From Parvularcula bermudensis HTCC2503 (lineage in GTDB: Bacteria > Pseudomonadota > Alphaproteobacteria > Caulobacterales > Parvularculaceae): a stretch of DNA of 64,000 nt. Position numbers and translations under genes: made by a program. The DNA is taken from the NCBI RefSeq assembly GCF_000152825.2, contig NC_014414.1, positions 1,674,001 to 1,738,000 of the forward strand. Direction: 5' to 3'. The notes beneath the pieces were generated by a model. It saw nothing but the letters and a program-made list of their open reading frames with translations. It ran no database searches and was not told the DNA's origin. Of this stretch, positions 21,452 to 34,780 are shown piece by piece. Numbering within the stretch: position 1 is the first letter of the stretch; the number at the start of each line of letters is the position of its first letter.

Positions 21452-22864
21452 ATGCCACTCAACCTCACCGCGCCGGATCTCACCGAGCTTTCGCCCCGAA
21501 TTAGCGTGATCGGCGTTGGCGGTGCGGGGGGCAATGCGGTCAACAATATGATCGAGGCGGAACTCGACGGTGTCGAATTTATCGTGGCGAATACGGACGC
21601 CCAGGCCGTCGGTCTCGCAAAAGCTCAGCATCGGCTTCAATTGGGCACCTCCACCACCCGTGGCCTTGGCGCCGGATCGCGGCCCGATGTCGGGCGTGAA
21701 GCGGCGATGGAAAGCCTCGACGAGGTGATGGACCTCATCGACGGGGCCAATATGCTGTTCATCACCGCAGGGATGGGCGGCGGCACCGGGACGGGGGCAG
21801 CCCCCGTCATTGCGGAGGCCGCGCGGGATCGGGGGATTCTGACCGTCGGTGTGGTGACCAAGCCGTTCCAGTTCGAGGGCGCTCGCCGTATGCGGATAGC
21901 TGAGGCGGGTATTGAGGAGCTGCAAGATAAAGTCGATACGCTTCTCATCATTCCCAATCAAAATCTTTTCCGGCTTGCGGACGAAAACACCACCTTCGCC
22001 GATGCCTTCGGCATGGCAGACCAAGTTCTCCATCAAGGGGTCCGGGGGATCACCGATCTGATGATCGTGCCTGGGCTCATCAATCTCGATTTTGCCGACG
22101 TCCGGTCGGTGATGAGCGAGATGGGCAAAGCCATGATGGGCACCGGCGAATCGTCCGGTGAAGGACGGGCCACAGAGGCTGCGCAGGCGGCAATCTCGAA
22201 CCCGCTCCTCGACGAGACGTCGATGAAGGGCGCCCGAGGGGTCCTTATCAACATCACCGGCGGTCTCGACATGAAACTCTTCGAGGTTGACGAAGCGGCC
22301 AACCGTATTCGGGCAGAAGTTGATCCGGACGCCAATATTATTGTCGGCTCGACCTTCAACCAAGAGCTTCAGGGAACAATGCGCGTTTCCGTGGTCGCCA
22401 CCGGGATTGAACGGGCGACCGCACCGGCGGAAATCGTGACCACGACGGCTCGGGCATCGACATCTGGCGACCAGCGCGCCGCCCAGGCGGGCACAAGCGC
22501 GACGGTCACTGCGGGGCGGGCGCCCGCCCCGGTGTCCGATGGCCGGTCGGGCCGTCCTGTGCCCCCTGAACCGCCGATTGGCGAGGTTCACGACCGTATC
22601 CGCCGGATGCTGACCGAAGATGCTCCGGTCCCGTTGAAGCCAGAACAGGCGCTTCCAGAACAAAAGCCCAATCCGTTCCGGAAATCCGCCGCAACGACCA
22701 TCGACCAGGCCATCGGTCTTCTGAAGGAGACCTTTGTCAAAGGAGTTGGCCCCTCCGAAGCCGAGGGTATCCGGCCGACCCCGGTGACCCGCGATGCTTT
22801 CGCCGATCATGAGGAGGAAGATCTCGACATCCCGGCATTCCTCCGCAAGCAGGCGCAGAAATAA
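21452..22864 (+). CDS. ftsZ: Cell division GTPase FtsZ
   Basis: 470-residue tubulin-like GTPase that forms the division ring at midcell. The GTP-binding core covers about residues 14-325, with [11 protein letters not shown] near 23-33, the tubulin signature [10 protein letters not shown] at 109-118 and the T7 loop NLDFADV at 211-217. A linker of about 130 residues rich in Ala, Pro and Thr follows, ending in the conserved C-terminal peptide [11 protein letters not shown], which binds FtsA and other partners, so the protein looks fully functional. AGGAA precedes the ATG. Unlike the usual alphaproteobacterial order, no ftsQ, ftsA or mur gene is adjacent; the gene stands alone with its own terminator, so it may be a relocated or second copy. 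A CtrA-like site lies upstream. Confidence 0.96.
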
Positions 22865-26783: not shown

Positions 26784-26873
26784 ATCAACCCAAAACCTAG
26801 GACGTTTCACGGCTCCGATTGACCAGAAACGATGCGAGATCGCTGTGCGAGGCGCCTGCTTGAAAGGAGCGGT

Positions 26874-27404
26874 ATGGAACAGACAAAGGGCGAGACGACG
26901 CCTTATGACGAGTTGCTGGCCGCCATGCGCGCCTATGGCGACGCCGCGATGGAGAATTTGGTTCGGTGTCGTGCCCTTGGTCGGGCGCTGTCCGATGGTT
27001 TTTCGGCCTATCTTGGGGCGCCGGGGCCCTGTACCTCCCTGGTCCCGCCCACCGGCCCCTTCGACCCAAGCAGGGATTACGGCGATGAGGCATTCTCCTT
27101 CAGCCAGCGGGAGGTCGTGCGCCTTGAGCCTATCGTCTTTGGCCTCTGCGTGATTGTACCGCATGAAGAGGACTCCGGGACTTTATGGCTTCGGACCGGA
27201 ATCAAGGCGGAGGTAAGGGGAGGGCGGTTTGACGTTTATATCGCCCATCAGCCGCGCCTCCGTGTGCCGCTTGAGTTCGGCGACCATCTGACCCCGGTTT
27301 ATGACACCGTGAAGACCGAACTCTTGTCGCTGTTCAATCAGGATCTGATGCACTTCAACGACGAACGGTATAATGGGGGTATCGGGTTCGTGCCGCAGAC
27401 TTAA
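26874..27404 (+). CDS. Hypothetical protein
   Basis: 176-residue soluble protein, unrecognised. The ATG at 26874 has GGAG five bases upstream, better than an in-frame start 42 bases earlier. The N-terminal third is helical (YDELLAAMRAYGDAAMENLV), then an aromatic segment DEAFSFSQREVVRLEPIVFG, a strand-rich middle (LCVIVPHEEDSGTLWLRTGI) and a C-terminus ending GGIGFVPQT. There is no signal peptide or membrane segment. The gene lies between the repeat array and glutathione reductase, 90 bases before the latter, and may share a transcript. Function cannot be inferred. Confidence 0.7.
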   Translation: MEQTKGETTPYDELLAAMRAYGDAAMENLVRCRALGRALSDGFSAYLGAPGPCTSLVPPTGPFDPSRDYGDEAFSFSQREVVRLEPIVFGLCVIVPHEEDSGTLWLRTGIKAEVRGGRFDVYIAHQPRLRVPLEFGDHLTPVYDTVKTELLSLFNQDLMHFNDERYNGGIGFVPQT

Positions 27405-28984: not shown

Positions 28985-30268
28985 ATGACCTCTGAAATTG
29001 TGTTGATGAACCGGCAGGCCGTGGCCATGGCCGCCGACAGTGCGGTCACGATTTCGGGCCCGAATTATCTCAAGACCTATCAGAGTGTCGATAAGCTCTT
29101 TCCGCTGGTGACCGATCAGCCCGTCGGCGTCATGATCTACAATAATGCCGAACTGATGGGCATGCCTTGGGAAACGATCATCTCCATCTATCGGGACCAG
29201 GCGCAGGGGCGAAATCTCGACAGCGTCGATGCCTATGCCCGGGATTTTATCGCCTTCTTGAACGGCAATACGGACCTTTTCCCCCAGGACCACCAGGACA
29301 AGGAATTTTTCAAGCACATTGCCGTGGTGATGAGCCTGATCGCCAGCGATTTTGACTATTACGTCGCGCAATTCACCGCCGCCCAGGCCGGCAGCCTGAG
29401 GGACCATGTGTCCGCGATCTTCGAATTCGTGGTGGCCCAATTGCACGACGATTATCAGATCAATCTCGATGACAGCCCGCGGGAGGATCTGCCGGCCTTT
29501 CCGAAGGGCACGGGGGACCAATTGCGACGGCGCTATGGCGGGCCCATCGCCGACATTATCGACAGCCTCATTCTCGCCCTGCGCCAGGATCATCCGGCCC
29601 TGTCCGTCTCCGAAGGGACGCGGCGCCAACTCGAAGAGATTGCGGTCCTCTCGGTCGTGAAGGATGCGTTCTTCGAGCACTATACCGGGGTTGTCTTCGC
29701 AGGGTTCGGCGCGCGGGAGACCTTTCCCTCCATGCGCAGCTATCTGACCTCGACGGTGGTGCTCGGGACGGTGAAGAACCGGCAGGACCGCACCGCCGCC
29801 GTGACAGCGGAGAGTGGGCCGGTGATCCAGCCCTTCGCCCAGGATCGCATGATCAGGACGTTCTTGACGGGCATGGATCAGGGGCTTCGCTATTTCCTCT
29901 TCGGTCAGACCCTTCGCCTGGCCACGACCCTGGTCAGTGATGTCGTTCAGCAAACGCCGGGCTTGTCCGAGGAACAGCGTCAGCGCCTTGCGTCTGACTA
30001 TTCGGAGGGAGATTTGGGACGGTCGATCCAGGCTTTTTTCGGGTCGATCGACGAATATTCCTACCTCTCCCACACAGGCCCGATCCTGCGCGCAATCGGC
30101 AGCCTGCCGAAGAAAGAGCTGGGGGAGACGGCGGCTTCCCTCATCAAGCTCAACGGGTTCCAGCAAAAGGTGATGCATTCGGTGGAAACGGTTGGCGGGC
30201 CGGTGAGCCTTGCGACCATTACCCGCAATGAGGGTCTCGTTATGGGCAAAGAAAAAGCGGAGCTCTGA
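28985..30268 (+). CDS. Proteasome/HslV-like Ntn-hydrolase fold protein
   Basis: 427 residues, no signal peptide. The N-terminus MTSEIVLMNRQAVAMAADSA aligns by eye with HslV and proteasome beta subunits: after Met removal Thr would be residue 1, the AADS aspartate falls at position 17 as in HslV, and SVDKLFPL places a lysine at 36, close to HslV Lys33. A strand VGVMIYNNAELMG follows, then a long helical insertion (about 110-240), then TGVVFAGFGARETFPSM and the end strand ETVGGPVSLATITRNEG. This matches a widespread uncharacterised family as far as I remember, but length and insertion differ from known peptidases. Enzyme activity is not shown. A small basic protein gene follows after two bases, so the two are co-transcribed. 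The upstream start (28916) would bury the Thr and is not preferred. Confidence 0.65.
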   Translation: MTSEIVLMNRQAVAMAADSAVTISGPNYLKTYQSVDKLFPLVTDQPVGVMIYNNAELMGMPWETIISIYRDQAQGRNLDSVDAYARDFIAFLNGNTDLFPQDHQDKEFFKHIAVVMSLIASDFDYYVAQFTAAQAGSLRDHVSAIFEFVVAQLHDDYQINLDDSPREDLPAFPKGTGDQLRRRYGGPIADIIDSLILALRQDHPALSVSEGTRRQLEEIAVLSVVKDAFFEHYTGVVFAGFGARETFPSMRSYLTSTVVLGTVKNRQDRTAAVTAESGPVIQPFAQDRMIRTFLTGMDQGLRYFLFGQTLRLATTLVSDVVQQTPGLSEEQRQRLASDYSEGDLGRSIQAFFGSIDEYSYLSHTGPILRAIGSLPKKELGETAASLIKLNGFQQKVMHSVETVGGPVSLATITRNEGLVMGKEKAEL

Positions 30269-30270
30269 GC

Positions 30271-30744
30271 ATGACTAAGGATCGTCTCGCCCAGATTTGG
30301 CAAGGGTTTAGCGAGCGCAGCCGTCTCGATCTTTCCGGGGTGAGGATTGAGGAGGGGACAGCCCCCCTTGATCGGCCCAGTGCCCGTCAAGAGCAGCCCT
30401 CGTTTCAGATGCCCGACGCCGCCGGCCAGCGGCGGCGCAGCGTCGGCGCTCCTGACCAAAGAACCAAGGCACCCGATCCCGTGGCGGCGGCCCTGATGGC
30501 CTTGCACGCCGATGACGGGGCGCCGAGGCGACGCGGCGGACGACAGCGCACACCCATGGCCGCCGCCGGAGATGACGTCACGGTCCCCCCGGCACCCGCC
30601 GTCGACGCGCGGGTGTTCGCCGACCTCGCCGCGACCCGGAACAAGACGACCCGGCGGCCGGCGGATTACCTCACCTATGCCGCGGCCCGACAAGAAGAGT
30701 GGCTGGCCAAACGTCGCCGCAAAAAATTCCTCGGCCTGTTTTAG
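30271..30744 (+). CDS. Hypothetical basic, disordered protein
   Basis: 157 residues, two bases after the Ntn-like gene and surely in its operon. An ordered start (TKDRLAQIWQGFSERSRLDL) is followed by a long low-complexity stretch rich in Arg, Pro and Ala, then a helical C-terminus RRPADYLTYAAARQEEWLAK and the basic end AKRRRKKFLGLF. No enzyme motif is visible. It could be a substrate, adaptor or regulator of the preceding protein; the basic tail might bind nucleic acid or membrane. All such roles are guesses. Confidence 0.65.
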   Translation: MTKDRLAQIWQGFSERSRLDLSGVRIEEGTAPLDRPSARQEQPSFQMPDAAGQRRRSVGAPDQRTKAPDPVAAALMALHADDGAPRRRGGRQRTPMAAAGDDVTVPPAPAVDARVFADLAATRNKTTRRPADYLTYAAARQEEWLAKRRRKKFLGLF

Positions 30745-31586: not shown

Positions 31587-31822
31587 TCTGACTCCTGTGA
31601 ACAAGCGTCGGGAGGGGGATGGGGCAGGATGGCCCGACGTGGCGTGATCTTTTTATCACGAATGTCAGAAGTGGCAGTGGCGGAAAAGGGAAATTGCCGC
31701 GGGAGGTGAGAATGACGGATGGATGTCACAAAAGTGAGAAGAAGGATCCCTAAGGGGCACATTGGAGGGGGGGCTTCCCCTTGTCATCTGTTCATTCTGC
31801 AATCTGCCTTAGGGGGCATCGC

Positions 31823-34780
31823 ATGACATCCATCAATTCTATCCGCGGCGGTCTTCTTCTTACCTCCGCCTGCGCCGTATTGGCGGCCTGCTCCGGCAGT
31901 GGTGAAGTCGCAAATTCCGGTGAGACCGGCGACGTCATCATTGGCGGTGGTTCCGGCGGTGGAGCACCCGTCGTCGCCGACGGTGAAATTAACTTCGTGA
32001 CGTCCGGCTGTCCCGACCAAACGGTTGAGGAAACGGTGACCATCGATGCTGGCAACAGTGAGACGGTCGACATCACCGCCTGTGTGATCCGCGGGACGAT
32101 CCTCGAAGATACGACCCTCGACAATGGCAACCTCTACGTCATCGACGGCCGCGCCTTTGTGGGCCAGCAAGCGATTTCCGGCGGGGTCCTGACCTCGACG
32201 ACCCCCGTCACCCTCACCATCGAAGACGGCACCGTGGTGGCCGGTCTGACCCGCGGCGACGGGTCGACGGACGGCTCGATCGGCACGCTGATCGTGACCG
32301 CCGGCTCGCAAATCGACGCCGACGGCACCGCGACCTCGCCGATCATCTTCACCTCGATCCAAGACCTGGTCGACGCCGATCTCGCGGCGGGTGACATTTC
32401 TGCGGTTGAGGCAGCTTCGGACGGTCTTGTCCTCGGTGAATCCGACGTCGTCGGCCAGTGGGGTGGCCTCGTCATCAACGGGTTCGCGCCGATCAACGAT
32501 TGCGCCAATGGCGATGAGACGCCGCAAGATGCCCAGGCTGAGTGCGTCAAGGACGGCGAAGGCGGTTCGGGCTTCTTCGGCGGCGACCAACCGGCAGACA
32601 ATTCCGGGACCCTTCGCTATGTTCGCGTTCAGTATGCCGGCTTTGGCATCACCGCGGATGACGAGCTGAACGGGATCGCCTTCCAGGGCGTCGGCAGCGG
32701 CACGACCGTCGACTACATCCAAGTTCACAATAACGACGATGACGGGGTCGAATTCTTCGGTGGGACGGTCAATGCCGACCACGTGGTCATCACCGGCGCC
32801 GGCGACGACTCGATCGACTGGACCGATGGCTGGACCGGCTCGATCCAATATGCCGTCGTTGTGCAGACCGACACCCCCGCCACGAACCGTGGGATCGAAG
32901 GCGACAACCGGAACGGCGATAACGACGTTCTGCCGCAATCCGACCCGGCCATCGCGAACTTCACCTTCGTGACGAATTTCGCCGGCGATGCGCCGACCGA
33001 TGCGGATGACGGCATCAAGCTGCGCCGCGGGACCCTTGCGACCCTCGCAAACGGCATCGTGGTTGGCTTCGAAGGTCAGGGCTGTGATTTCGACGATCCG
33101 TCGGCGGCCCAGGACAATGGGGAACGCCCCGAGCTCTTGTCGATCTTCACCGCCAATAACGACGCGGCCTTTGACGGCGATTGTGAGCCGCTCTTCACCG
33201 CGACGGGCAATGGCAATGTCGCGTCGGCCGGGACGACGCTGAACGGTCTCTTCTCCGGGCCCACCGAACAAGCGGTTGCGGCGGCTGACCTCAGCGCCTT
33301 CACCCAGTTCGACAATGTCGACTACATCGGCGCCTTCGACGACTCTGTTCAGACGATCGAAGCCAGCTGGCTCGCCGACTGGGTGCTGGCGACGCCGCTG
33401 CCGAACGAAACCTCCGATGACTGCCCTGTCGGCACCACCGAGAGCACCGAGGCTGTGCCTGCTGGCCGGACCGAGGCAAATATCTGCGTCCTGCCGAAAA
33501 CCATCACGCAAGACACCACGCTGACCCGCGGCAATCTTTATCAGATTGCTGAGGACTCCACCTTTGTGGGGACCGATGCCGGCCCCGACGGGGACAACCC
33601 CTTCGCCGGTGCGGTGTCTGTGACCCTCACCATCGATCCGGGCGTCACCGTGTTCGGCGAAGCCCGTCCGGGCGTCAGCGCCGACGCGCTGATCGTCACC
33701 CGCGGCAGCATGATCGAATCCAACGGGACCTCGGCCAATCCGGTCATCTTCACCTCCCGCCAGGATGTCGAAGGCACCGTCGGTGAGTTCGAAGTCGGCC
33801 AGTGGGGCGGCATCGTGATCAACGGTCGCGCGCCGATCAATGACTGCGCCAATGGCGATGAGACCCCGCAGGATGCGCAGGTCGATTGCGTCAAGGACGG
33901 CGAGGGCAGCTCGGGCTTCTTCGGCGGCAACAAAGCCGACGATGACTCCGGCAACCTCACCTACACCCGGGTTCAGTATGCGGGCTTCGGCATCACCGCC
34001 GATGACGAGCTGAACGGGATCGCCTTCCAGGGCGTCGGCAGCGAAACCGATGTGAACTACATCCAGGTCCACAACAATGACGATGACGGGGTCGAATTCT
34101 TCGGCGGGACGGTCAGCGCCAAATATGTTGTGATCACCGGTGCGGGCGACGACTCGATCGACTGGACCGATGGCTGGATTGGCAACATCCAATACGCCAT
34201 CGTCGTGCAGACCGATACGCCGGCCACCAACCGCGGTATGGAAGGCGACAACCGGAACGGCGACAACGACGTTCTGCCGCAATCCAATCCCTGGATCGCG
34301 AACTACACCTTGGCCACCAACTTTGCGGGCAGCGCGCCGACGGATGCCGATGACGGGATCAAGCTTCGTCGCGGGACCCGTGGCCTCTTCGCCAACGGCA
34401 TTGTGGTGAACTTCGAAGGTCAAGGCTGTGACTATGACGATCCGTCGGCGGCCCAGGACAATGGTGAGCGTCCCTCGCTGTTCTCCAACTACATGGCCGG
34501 CAATGCGGCAGCCTTCGACGGCGATTGCTCGCCGCTCTTCAGCGCCACAGGTGCCGGGAACGTTGCCGGGACCGACTCCACGCTCCTGGCCGATACGGAC
34601 GGCACGGATGCAGCCCTGCTGCCGAACACCGAGATCACGACCTCGGTGACGGCCTATGACACGGATGGCGCCGCGACCGGTATTTCGGGTCGCGACGGGT
34701 TCTTCGATGACGCGGATTATCCGGGTGCCATCGAAAACGACGACGACAATTGGTACGTCGGTTGGACCTTCGGCCTGTAA
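31823..34780 (+). CDS. Internally duplicated beta-helix surface lipoprotein
   Basis: 985-residue lipoprotein. The signal peptide ends in a lipobox LAAC (lipidated Cys23), followed by a Gly/Ser-rich spacer. Two long copies of about 260 near-identical residues, offset by exactly 448 residues, each contain WGGLVINGFAPIN, FGITADDELNGIAFQGVGS and VHNNDDDGVEFFGGTV, a run of short Asp/Asn/Gly-rich turns as in right-handed parallel beta-helices. Paired cysteines (DCANGDE, ECVKDGE, GCDFDDP, DGDCEPL) probably form disulfides. The family is met in many marine bacteria beside TonB receptors, from memory. The gene lies between the prepilin peptidase and a TonB receptor within the T2SS cluster, so it may be a T2SS-exported surface protein. 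The start at 31823 begins the signal peptide; in-frame codons upstream are not used. Confidence 0.85.
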   Translation: MTSINSIRGGLLLTSACAVLAACSGSGEVANSGETGDVIIGGGSGGGAPVVADGEINFVTSGCPDQTVEETVTIDAGNSETVDITACVIRGTILEDTTLDNGNLYVIDGRAFVGQQAISGGVLTSTTPVTLTIEDGTVVAGLTRGDGSTDGSIGTLIVTAGSQIDADGTATSPIIFTSIQDLVDADLAAGDISAVEAASDGLVLGESDVVGQWGGLVINGFAPINDCANGDETPQDAQAECVKDGEGGSGFFGGDQPADNSGTLRYVRVQYAGFGITADDELNGIAFQGVGSGTTVDYIQVHNNDDDGVEFFGGTVNADHVVITGAGDDSIDWTDGWTGSIQYAVVVQTDTPATNRGIEGDNRNGDNDVLPQSDPAIANFTFVTNFAGDAPTDADDGIKLRRGTLATLANGIVVGFEGQGCDFDDPSAAQDNGERPELLSIFTANNDAAFDGDCEPLFTATGNGNVASAGTTLNGLFSGPTEQAVAAADLSAFTQFDNVDYIGAFDDSVQTIEASWLADWVLATPLPNETSDDCPVGTTESTEAVPAGRTEANICVLPKTITQDTTLTRGNLYQIAEDSTFVGTDAGPDGDNPFAGAVSVTLTIDPGVTVFGEARPGVSADALIVTRGSMIESNGTSANPVIFTSRQDVEGTVGEFEVGQWGGIVINGRAPINDCANGDETPQDAQVDCVKDGEGSSGFFGGNKADDDSGNLTYTRVQYAGFGITADDELNGIAFQGVGSETDVNYIQVHNNDDDGVEFFGGTVSAKYVVITGAGDDSIDWTDGWIGNIQYAIVVQTDTPATNRGMEGDNRNGDNDVLPQSNPWIANYTLATNFAGSAPTDADDGIKLRRGTRGLFANGIVVNFEGQGCDYDDPSAAQDNGERPSLFSNYMAGNAAAFDGDCSPLFSATGAGNVAGTDSTLLADTDGTDAALLPNTEITTSVTAYDTDGAATGISGRDGFFDDADYPGAIENDDDNWYVGWTFGL
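32450..34576 (+). repeat. Long internal direct duplication within the lipoprotein gene
   Basis: The block beginning 32450 (GTCGGCCAGTGGGG) recurs at 33794 with an offset of 1344 bases, exactly 448 codons, and the match continues to about 33232 and 34576. Third-position differences show the copies have diverged under selection for the same protein. It is a gene-internal duplication, not a mobile element. Confidence 0.88.

What the first reader, a model, noticed from the sequence alone, without database searches (positions are those of the whole stretch)
28985..30268. Uncharacterised proteasome/HslV-like Ntn-hydrolase with long insertion
The protein starts Met-Thr and, if Met is removed, the Thr, the Asp of AADS (position 17) and the Lys of SVDKLFPL (position 36) fall at or near the catalytic Thr1/Asp17/Lys33 of HslV and proteasome beta subunits. 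The final strand ETVGGPVSLATITRNEG also fits such a fold. It has a helical insertion of over 100 residues and no nearby HslU, ClpX or proteasome-activating ATPase, so it would be a stand-alone or novel assembly.
Basis: partly seen in the sequence, partly recalled or inferred. Interest (0 to 1): 0.7.

Follow-up and report, generated by a model that had tools for sequence, protein, structure and literature searches.

The report
Proteasome-like enzyme with small partner
The gene encodes a relative of the proteasome's cutting subunit with extra helical parts, of a kind described in 2021 but with no known job, and it travels, on phages as well as in chromosomes, together with a small neighbouring gene that may be its working partner.

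Summary
ORF 28985-30268 encodes 427 aa with conserved Thr2, Asp18 and Lys37. A confident AlphaFold2 model has the proteasome beta-subunit topology plus two helical insertions; all 43 Foldseek PDB hits at E<=1e-3 are 20S proteasome chains. It is no orphan: its family (PHROG 5990) occurs in Parvularculaceae chromosomes, phages, satellite phages and plasmids. Anatomy and distribution fit PMI-4, named by Fuchs, Alva and Lupas in 2021, who reported no telling gene context; identity by sequence could not be tested. Apparently new: it is not stand-alone. Nearly every member is followed at once by a short gene: 34 of 37 viral loci against 48 of 234 control genes, then, by the same rule on loci not seen before, 21 of 21 against 21 of 81. 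These small genes evolve as coding (pN/pS 0.26-0.41), differ between clades and follow the protease tree. In the window the partner is 30271-30744, ending in a basic FLGLF tail whose type a second bacterial family shares. Phage neighbours upstream are often repressor (8 of 30) or lysis genes (9 of 30). I infer a protease-partner pair, used as prophage cargo. Function is untested; a tethered model did not dock the tail.

The parts
28985..30268 (+). PMI-type proteasome-like Ntn-hydrolase, 427 aa plus stop
   Evidence: (PHROG 5990, E 6e-74)
28988..28990 (+). codon of Thr2 (mature Thr1), presumed N-terminal nucleophile
   Evidence: invariant; one Ser exception elsewhere in the family
29036..29038 (+). 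codon of Asp18 (mature Asp17)
   Evidence: invariant
29093..29095 (+). codon of Lys37 (mature Lys36; proteasome Lys33)
   Evidence: invariant
29261..29683 (+). first helical insertion, residues 93-233, after helices H1/H2
   Evidence: AlphaFold2 secondary structure
29879..30103 (+). second helical insertion, residues 299-373, between H3 and H4
   Evidence: AlphaFold2 secondary structure
30271..30744 (+). downstream partner gene, 157 aa, starts 2 bases after the protease stop; no Pfam or PHROG match
30721..30744 (+). codons of the partner's C-terminal tail (KKFLGLF) and stop; the only stop-ended match of the tail pattern in the genome

Best explanation
The gene makes an active-type, proteasome-like N-terminal-threonine hydrolase of the PMI kind. 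Removal of the first Met exposes Thr1, with Asp17 and Lys36 as helpers (residues shown; activity inferred). It works with a cognate small protein made from the gene just downstream (linkage shown; physical contact inferred). The partner most likely docks on the enzyme through short hydrophobic motifs, in Parvularculaceae a C-terminal basic-FLG[IL]F tail, to control access to the active site or to bring a substrate (inferred). The helical insertions would replace the ring-and-unfoldase arrangement of HslV (inferred). On phages, satellites and plasmids the pair is accessory cargo, plausibly for superinfection exclusion or element maintenance (inferred); in Parvularculaceae it has become a nearly fixed chromosomal gene pair.
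For: Fold and triad. Wide family: 80 of 299 genomes of the order, 10 of 398 of a phylum sample, own genome included, 13 phage records, 10 plasmid records, 170 confirmed of 213 viral candidate stretches. Partner: a short ATG ORF (28-80 aa) within -25..+40 bases of the stop in 34 of 37 viral loci against 48 of 234 other genes of the same loci; with a relaxed ribosome site 28 of 37 against 30 of 234, with a strict one 20 of 37 against 24 of 234 (this rule was set after looking at these loci). The same rule on 21 later representatives, each under 70% identical to every earlier one: 21 of 21 against 21 of 81, relaxed 18 of 21 against 7 of 81, strict 17 of 21 against 6 of 81. Coding constraint: pN/pS 0.26 (54 pairs), 0.41 (4 pairs), 0.31 (24 pairs) (pairs overlap). 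In Parvularculaceae the pair keeps together while flanks change: a partner of this type follows the protease in 30 of 30 loci, while the window's gor and rpiA are beside it in 1 of 50 loci tested. 14 multi-member partner types on a 55-row protease tree need 13 changes, the least possible. Cargo sites: of 30 upstream genes scanned (of 38), 8 match phage repressors or regulators and 9 lysis proteins. The place after the repressor in L116 holds an MqsA-family antitoxin gene in a related E. coli prophage.
Against: No activity or binding was shown. The tethered model of a close relative (L003) did not dock the partner: the tail had pLDDT under 50. The tail exists only in the Parvularculaceae and f5 types; other partner types share no sequence detectable here. 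The window's own partner finds only 3 of 50 loci by tblastn, so it evolves fast and its kinship to the others rests on order, start and tail. Five of 144 proteases away from a record or contig end lack a candidate: L089, L110, L175, L178, L181. The oxyanion-hole Gly is not conserved; this clade has Asn there by my reading. Presence in 57 of 60 genomes of the family argues against a purely defensive role there. No PADLOC model matches.
Confidence: 0.5

Rival explanations
1. The partner is the dedicated substrate: the enzyme cleaves or ligates it, as connectase joins tagged proteins, and the products carry the function.
For: Connectase, a proteasome homologue, is a ligase (PMC8665760). Partners are short and highly variable while the enzyme core is conserved, and the tail ends in Phe in 44 of 46 Parvularculaceae and 10 of 10 f5 partners.
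Against: No motif common to all partner types was seen, which a single cleavage rule would predict. Nothing was docked.
Confidence: 0.2
2. Toxin-antidote style module acting inside the bacterium: the protease is harmful and the small protein restrains it until infection or loss of the element.
For: Found on phages, satellite phages and plasmids; upstream gene is a repressor or regulator in 8 of 30 loci scanned; an MqsA-family antitoxin gene occupies that place in a relative.
Against: 57 of 60 genomes of the family hold a match, more like a core gene. No PADLOC match. No toxicity data.
Confidence: 0.2
3. Stand-alone housekeeping protease; the downstream gene is an incidental operon neighbour.
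For: None of 10 neighbours scanned is an AAA+ partner; Fuchs et al. found no telling context.
Against: Small downstream gene in 34 of 37 and, on later loci, 21 of 21 viral proteases against 48 of 234 and 21 of 81 control genes; co-inheritance.
Confidence: 0.1

Closest known systems
PMI-4, proteasome homologue with multiple insertions (Fuchs, Alva, Lupas 2021, PMC8665760)
   Same: Insertions after H1/H2 and between H3/H4, catalytic Thr/Asp/Lys, spread over many phyla and phages; of the PMI types only PMI-4 is marked for phages in Table 1.
   Different: Sequences of PMI-4 were out of reach, so identity is inferred. No partner gene in the parts I saw; 'operon', 'downstream' and 'adjacent' do not occur in the main text.
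PHROG 5990 (unknown function)
   Same: Near whole-length match (residues 1-424), E 6e-74.
   Different: The listing gives no function.
HslV-HslU
   Same: Ntn threonine protease gene followed at once by a partner gene; HslU is known to dock by its C-terminal tail (recalled).
   Different: Partner here is a small protein, not an AAA+ unfoldase; two large insertions; no HslV among the 50 Foldseek rows shown of 354 matches.
Anbu
   Same: Proteasome-like, ranks 44 and 48 in Foldseek; no unfoldase known (PMC8665760).
   Different: An Anbu-like gene lies elsewhere in this genome and is much shorter, 243 aa.
lambda rexAB (recalled)
   Same: Accessory genes just after the prophage repressor.
   Different: Unrelated proteins; a repressor or regulator is the upstream gene in 8 of 30 scanned loci only.

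Membership tests
Proteasome-like (Ntn-hydrolase) family | alpha-beta-beta-alpha Ntn fold | tested here: met
   Model pLDDT 87.1, pTM 0.82; all 43 PDB hits at E<=1e-3 are 20S proteasome chains, best 9e-6, but TM-scores are low (query 0.20-0.28, target 0.35-0.54), I think because of the insertions. In the viral library 2 hits at E<=1e-3, one named proteasome beta type-2
Proteasome-like (Ntn-hydrolase) family | N-terminal Thr (or Ser) with Asp and Lys | tested here: met
   24 of 24 and 52 of 52; one Ser member, L295
Proteasome-like (Ntn-hydrolase) family | Sequence match to Pfam Proteasome PF00227 | tested here: not met
   No hit for the window protein and it is not among the two PF00227 matches of the genome; 3 of 24 members at E<=1, best 0.0063. 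Not a defining feature for distant homologues, which the 2021 paper found by weak PSI-BLAST matches
PMI-4 | Insertions after H1/H2 and between H3/H4 | tested here: met
   Residues 93-233 and 299-373 against the text
PMI-4 | Occurs in phages and several phyla | tested here: met
   Proteobacterial, streptococcal, enterococcal and Porphyromonas hosts or phages
PMI-4 | Sequence clusters with PMI-4 representatives (HDY66466.1) | not testable with these tools
   Representative sequence and supplement not held
HslV | Compact subunit paired with HslU | tested here: not met
   Insertions; no HslU among 10 neighbours; HslVU elsewhere
Anti-phage defence system | Match to a known system | tested here: not met
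   No PADLOC match; partner not scanned against PADLOC
Anti-phage defence system | Protection against phage | not testable with these tools
   Needs an assay

The most novel reading that the evidence does not exclude
PMI-type proteasome homologues are not lone enzymes but the catalytic half of a widespread two-component system with a hypervariable microprotein, carried by temperate phages, satellites and plasmids as superinfection-exclusion or maintenance cargo and domesticated in Parvularculaceae. On rhizobial plasmids it is wired to a multi-ubiquitin/E1 cassette, a possible bacterial ubiquitin-like to proteasome-like link.
Probability: 0.3. Interest if true: 0.85.

Novelty: new variant of a known kind. 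Interest (0 to 1): 0.6.

Why it matters
Twenty-two new proteasome-like families were described in 2021 with few clues to function and no telling context. A conserved small partner gives one of the larger ones a direct experimental handle: co-purify, test activity with and without partner, and challenge with phage. If the partner gates or feeds the enzyme, it would show proteasome-type catalysis controlled without an ATPase.

Tried and rejected
Docking test: I read the stop codon between protease and partner as Gly in 13 Parvularculaceae loci where the two genes are in frame, aligned them with 19 viral homologues and folded the first, L003. The partner was largely low-confidence (tail under 50), so tail docking is unsupported; docking at a subunit interface cannot be seen in a monomer.

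Idea that the phage proteases' own KRKHYF C-terminus is replaced in trans by the partner tail (note): only a resemblance, dropped because phage members have both that C-terminus and a partner.

Natural fusions: four of the five members without a visible partner and away from a contig end are long (L089 478 aa, L110 465, L181 451, L175 443), but L178 (403 aa) is not and the extensions do not resemble partners; unproven.

Multi-ubiquitin/E1 link: kept as a lead only. It lies near the protease in 4 of 9 plasmid hits opened (H6 was not opened), all rhizobial. The same protein queries found it in no other locus held nor in L186-L191, L194 and L195; many of those loci have short flanks.

PDB sequence searches gave nothing convincing (whose best profile row, E 0.017, is a chimera that I take for coiled coil, and proteasome beta1 only E 0.51). 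Pfam, NCBIfam and PADLOC scans of the protein were empty. Paper searches listed one paper on the PMI families, PMC8665760; of its six text parts I saw 1-5 and passages, no supplement. For other papers I saw listings only.

Rows dropped: one search lost L154 and L156 (no start). Of 43 viral representatives at 70% identity L160, a fragment, was left out of A2. One search set aside 4 edge loci. Searches used 39 loci picked by hand: 38 of the 43 representatives plus L116, which is close to another representative; L141, L150, L160, L167 and L171 were left out, and 2 of the 39 lay too near a contig end. Searches scanned 30 of the 38 upstream genes found (nearest ORF over 250 bases, up to about 1.1 kb away). 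One search used 101 of 103 later loci, of which 26 were under 70% identical to earlier ones, 22 representatives, 21 testable. In one search f1 was cut to 10 rows and single partners were not counted as types; no shuffled-label control was printed. In one search partners of L158 and L159 were set by hand, and L093 and L071 left out.

Full report
What is there. The ORF at 28985-30268 encodes a 427-aa protein beginning Met-Thr-Ser-Glu. Thr2, Asp18 and Lys37 are invariant in 24 of 24 diverse homologues and 52 of 52 of a second alignment. Among 103 later viral loci, partly repeats of contigs seen before, 98 passed the Met-Thr start test; of the other five, two begin MTAE as well, two lack the N-terminal end (L247 was read, L248 is its twin by coordinates and length), and one, L295, begins Met-Ser. 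The oxyanion-hole Gly (Gly47 in the proteasome) is not invariant: this clade reads MIYNNAE where many phage members read MIYGNAE (the equivalence is my reading).

Fold. AlphaFold2 on the window protein with 51 homologues gave mean pLDDT 87.1 and pTM 0.82. The order of strands and helices is that of a proteasome beta subunit with two helical insertions: residues 93-233 after H1/H2 and 299-373 between H3 and H4. Foldseek against the PDB found 43 chains at E<=1e-3, all 20S proteasome, with Anbu at ranks 44 and 48 (50 of 354 rows shown). TM-scores are low (query 0.20-0.28, target 0.35-0.54); E-values and topology carry the argument. The viral library gave 2 hits at E<=1e-3, one named proteasome beta type-2. 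By sequence alone the link is almost invisible: no Pfam, NCBIfam or PADLOC hit, and PF00227 in only 3 of 24 members at E<=1.

Family. PHROG 5990, function unknown, matches residues 1-424 at E 6e-74. In the order, 80 of 299 genomes have a match. Of the window's own family 57 of 60 do; the 60 is my count of the listed rows, which run by kinship. One of the 57 (G119) has only a divergent copy and one (G248) only fragments. In a sample of the phylum 10 of 398 do, the own genome included. Outside chromosomes it is on 13 phage records, among them Streptococcus satellite phages, on 10 plasmid records and in IMG/VR contigs (170 of 213 candidate stretches confirmed, 80 kept). The genome also carries HslV-HslU and an Anbu-like gene.

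Known or not. Fuchs, Alva and Lupas (2021, PMC8665760) described 22 new proteasome homologues. PMI-4 has insertions at these two sites, 501 sequences at 90% identity, and is the only PMI type marked for phages. [quoted passage not shown]

The partner gene in Parvularculaceae. Two bases after the protease stop begins a 157-aa gene, 30271-30744. The protease's flanks change: the window's gor and rpiA lie near it in 1 of 50 loci tested, L003. A downstream gene of the same type follows the protease in 30 of 30 Parvularculaceae loci (29 of 30 by blastp from one of them, against 26 of 30 for the next neighbour that does not overlap the protease). It evolves fast: the window's copy finds only 3 of 50 loci by tblastn. 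Of 46 distinct partners 44 end in a basic stretch and a hydrophobic tail closing with Phe, mostly FLG[IL]F or RFG[IL]F; the exceptions are L004, which runs off its contig, and L006. The ten partners of family f5 end in the same way although nothing else aligns: hhalign finds the tail alone, probability 84. In the window's genome a pattern for this tail hits once with a stop codon; a second hit ends in TGG.

The partner elsewhere. In phages and plasmids the protease is followed by an ORF of about 34-71 aa, often with a ribosome-binding site and in several records not annotated. I made one rule (ATG within -25..+40 bases of the stop, 28-80 aa) after looking at these loci. On them, 34 of 37 proteases qualify against 48 of 234 other genes; with a relaxed ribosome site 28 of 37 against 30 of 234; with a strict one 20 of 37 against 24 of 234. 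I then fetched further loci with two other queries and applied the rule unchanged to those under 70% identical to any earlier protease: 21 of 21 against 21 of 81, relaxed 18 of 21 against 7 of 81, strict 17 of 21 against 6 of 81, p 5e-11 for the last. Over all first-round distinct loci, any start codon and a strict site, 97 of 134 qualify against 58 of 263 long ORFs and 12% of shuffles. Between related partners amino-acid changes are rarer than silent ones: pN/pS 0.26 over 54 pairs in Parvularculaceae, 0.41 over 4 in f5, 0.31 over 24 elsewhere (pairs overlap). Ten partners scanned match nothing in Pfam or PHROGs beyond weak hits. Fourteen multi-member types lie on a 55-row protease tree with 13 changes, the least possible, so these pairs look inherited together. 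Seven of 144 proteases show no candidate; L084 and L094 end at a record or contig end, five do not.

Setting. Of 30 upstream genes scanned (38 found), 8 match phage repressors or regulators, 9 endolysins, related peptidases or holins (two on the other strand), 4 structural or methyltransferase genes, and 9 nothing of known function. Both kinds of place are usual sites of accessory prophage genes (recalled). In L116 the pair follows the repressor; an E. coli prophage that matches this stretch of L116 in two pieces (33% of it) has an MqsA-family antitoxin gene and a hypothetical gene after its repressor instead.

How it may work. Shown: catalytic residues, predicted fold, gene linkage, co-inheritance. 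Inferred: Met removal exposes Thr1; the enzyme is active; the small protein binds it and controls or feeds it; the insertions cap or replace a ring. A test of docking with a tethered natural pair failed to place the tail, so the binding mode is open. Whether the partner is regulator, substrate or antidote cannot be told from sequence.

Ubiquitin lead. On a Mesorhizobium plasmid and three Rhizobium plasmids, of nine plasmid hits opened, multi-ubiquitin and ThiF genes lie within about 5 kb, in two different arrangements. The Rhizobium cassettes are close kin (E1 78-93% identical), so this is two lineages at most and may be chance clustering.

Verdict. The protein is a new member of a family known since 2021; the small partner gene is, as far as the searches named above show, unreported, and lifts the interest.

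Noticed in passing
L089, L091, L192, L193: Rhizobial plasmids carry multi-ubiquitin and ThiF (E1-like) genes, in Rhizobium also a Clp protease subunit, near the protease gene.
   Followed up: partly
G000 (L001, L002): The genome also encodes HslV-HslU and an Anbu-like subunit, so it has three proteasome-like proteins.
   Followed up: partly
L295: A family member that begins Met-Ser instead of Met-Thr, a possible Ser-nucleophile variant.
   Followed up: no
window 31781-34780: 999-aa ORF without Pfam hit, with what look like two long internal repeats, followed by a TonB-dependent receptor.
   Followed up: no
window 21452-22864: FtsZ-family gene next to a TonB receptor; whether it is the genome's main FtsZ was not checked.
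   Followed up: no
window 26832-27404: 190-aa ORF without Pfam hit, kept beside gor and rpiA in the relative L003.
   Followed up: no
L074 (G119), L071 (G104): Same-genus genomes: G119 has only a divergent copy; G104 has a second, divergent copy besides the usual one.
   Followed up: no
L192, L194, L195: Protease genes on these plasmids look frame-broken or partial.
   Followed up: no
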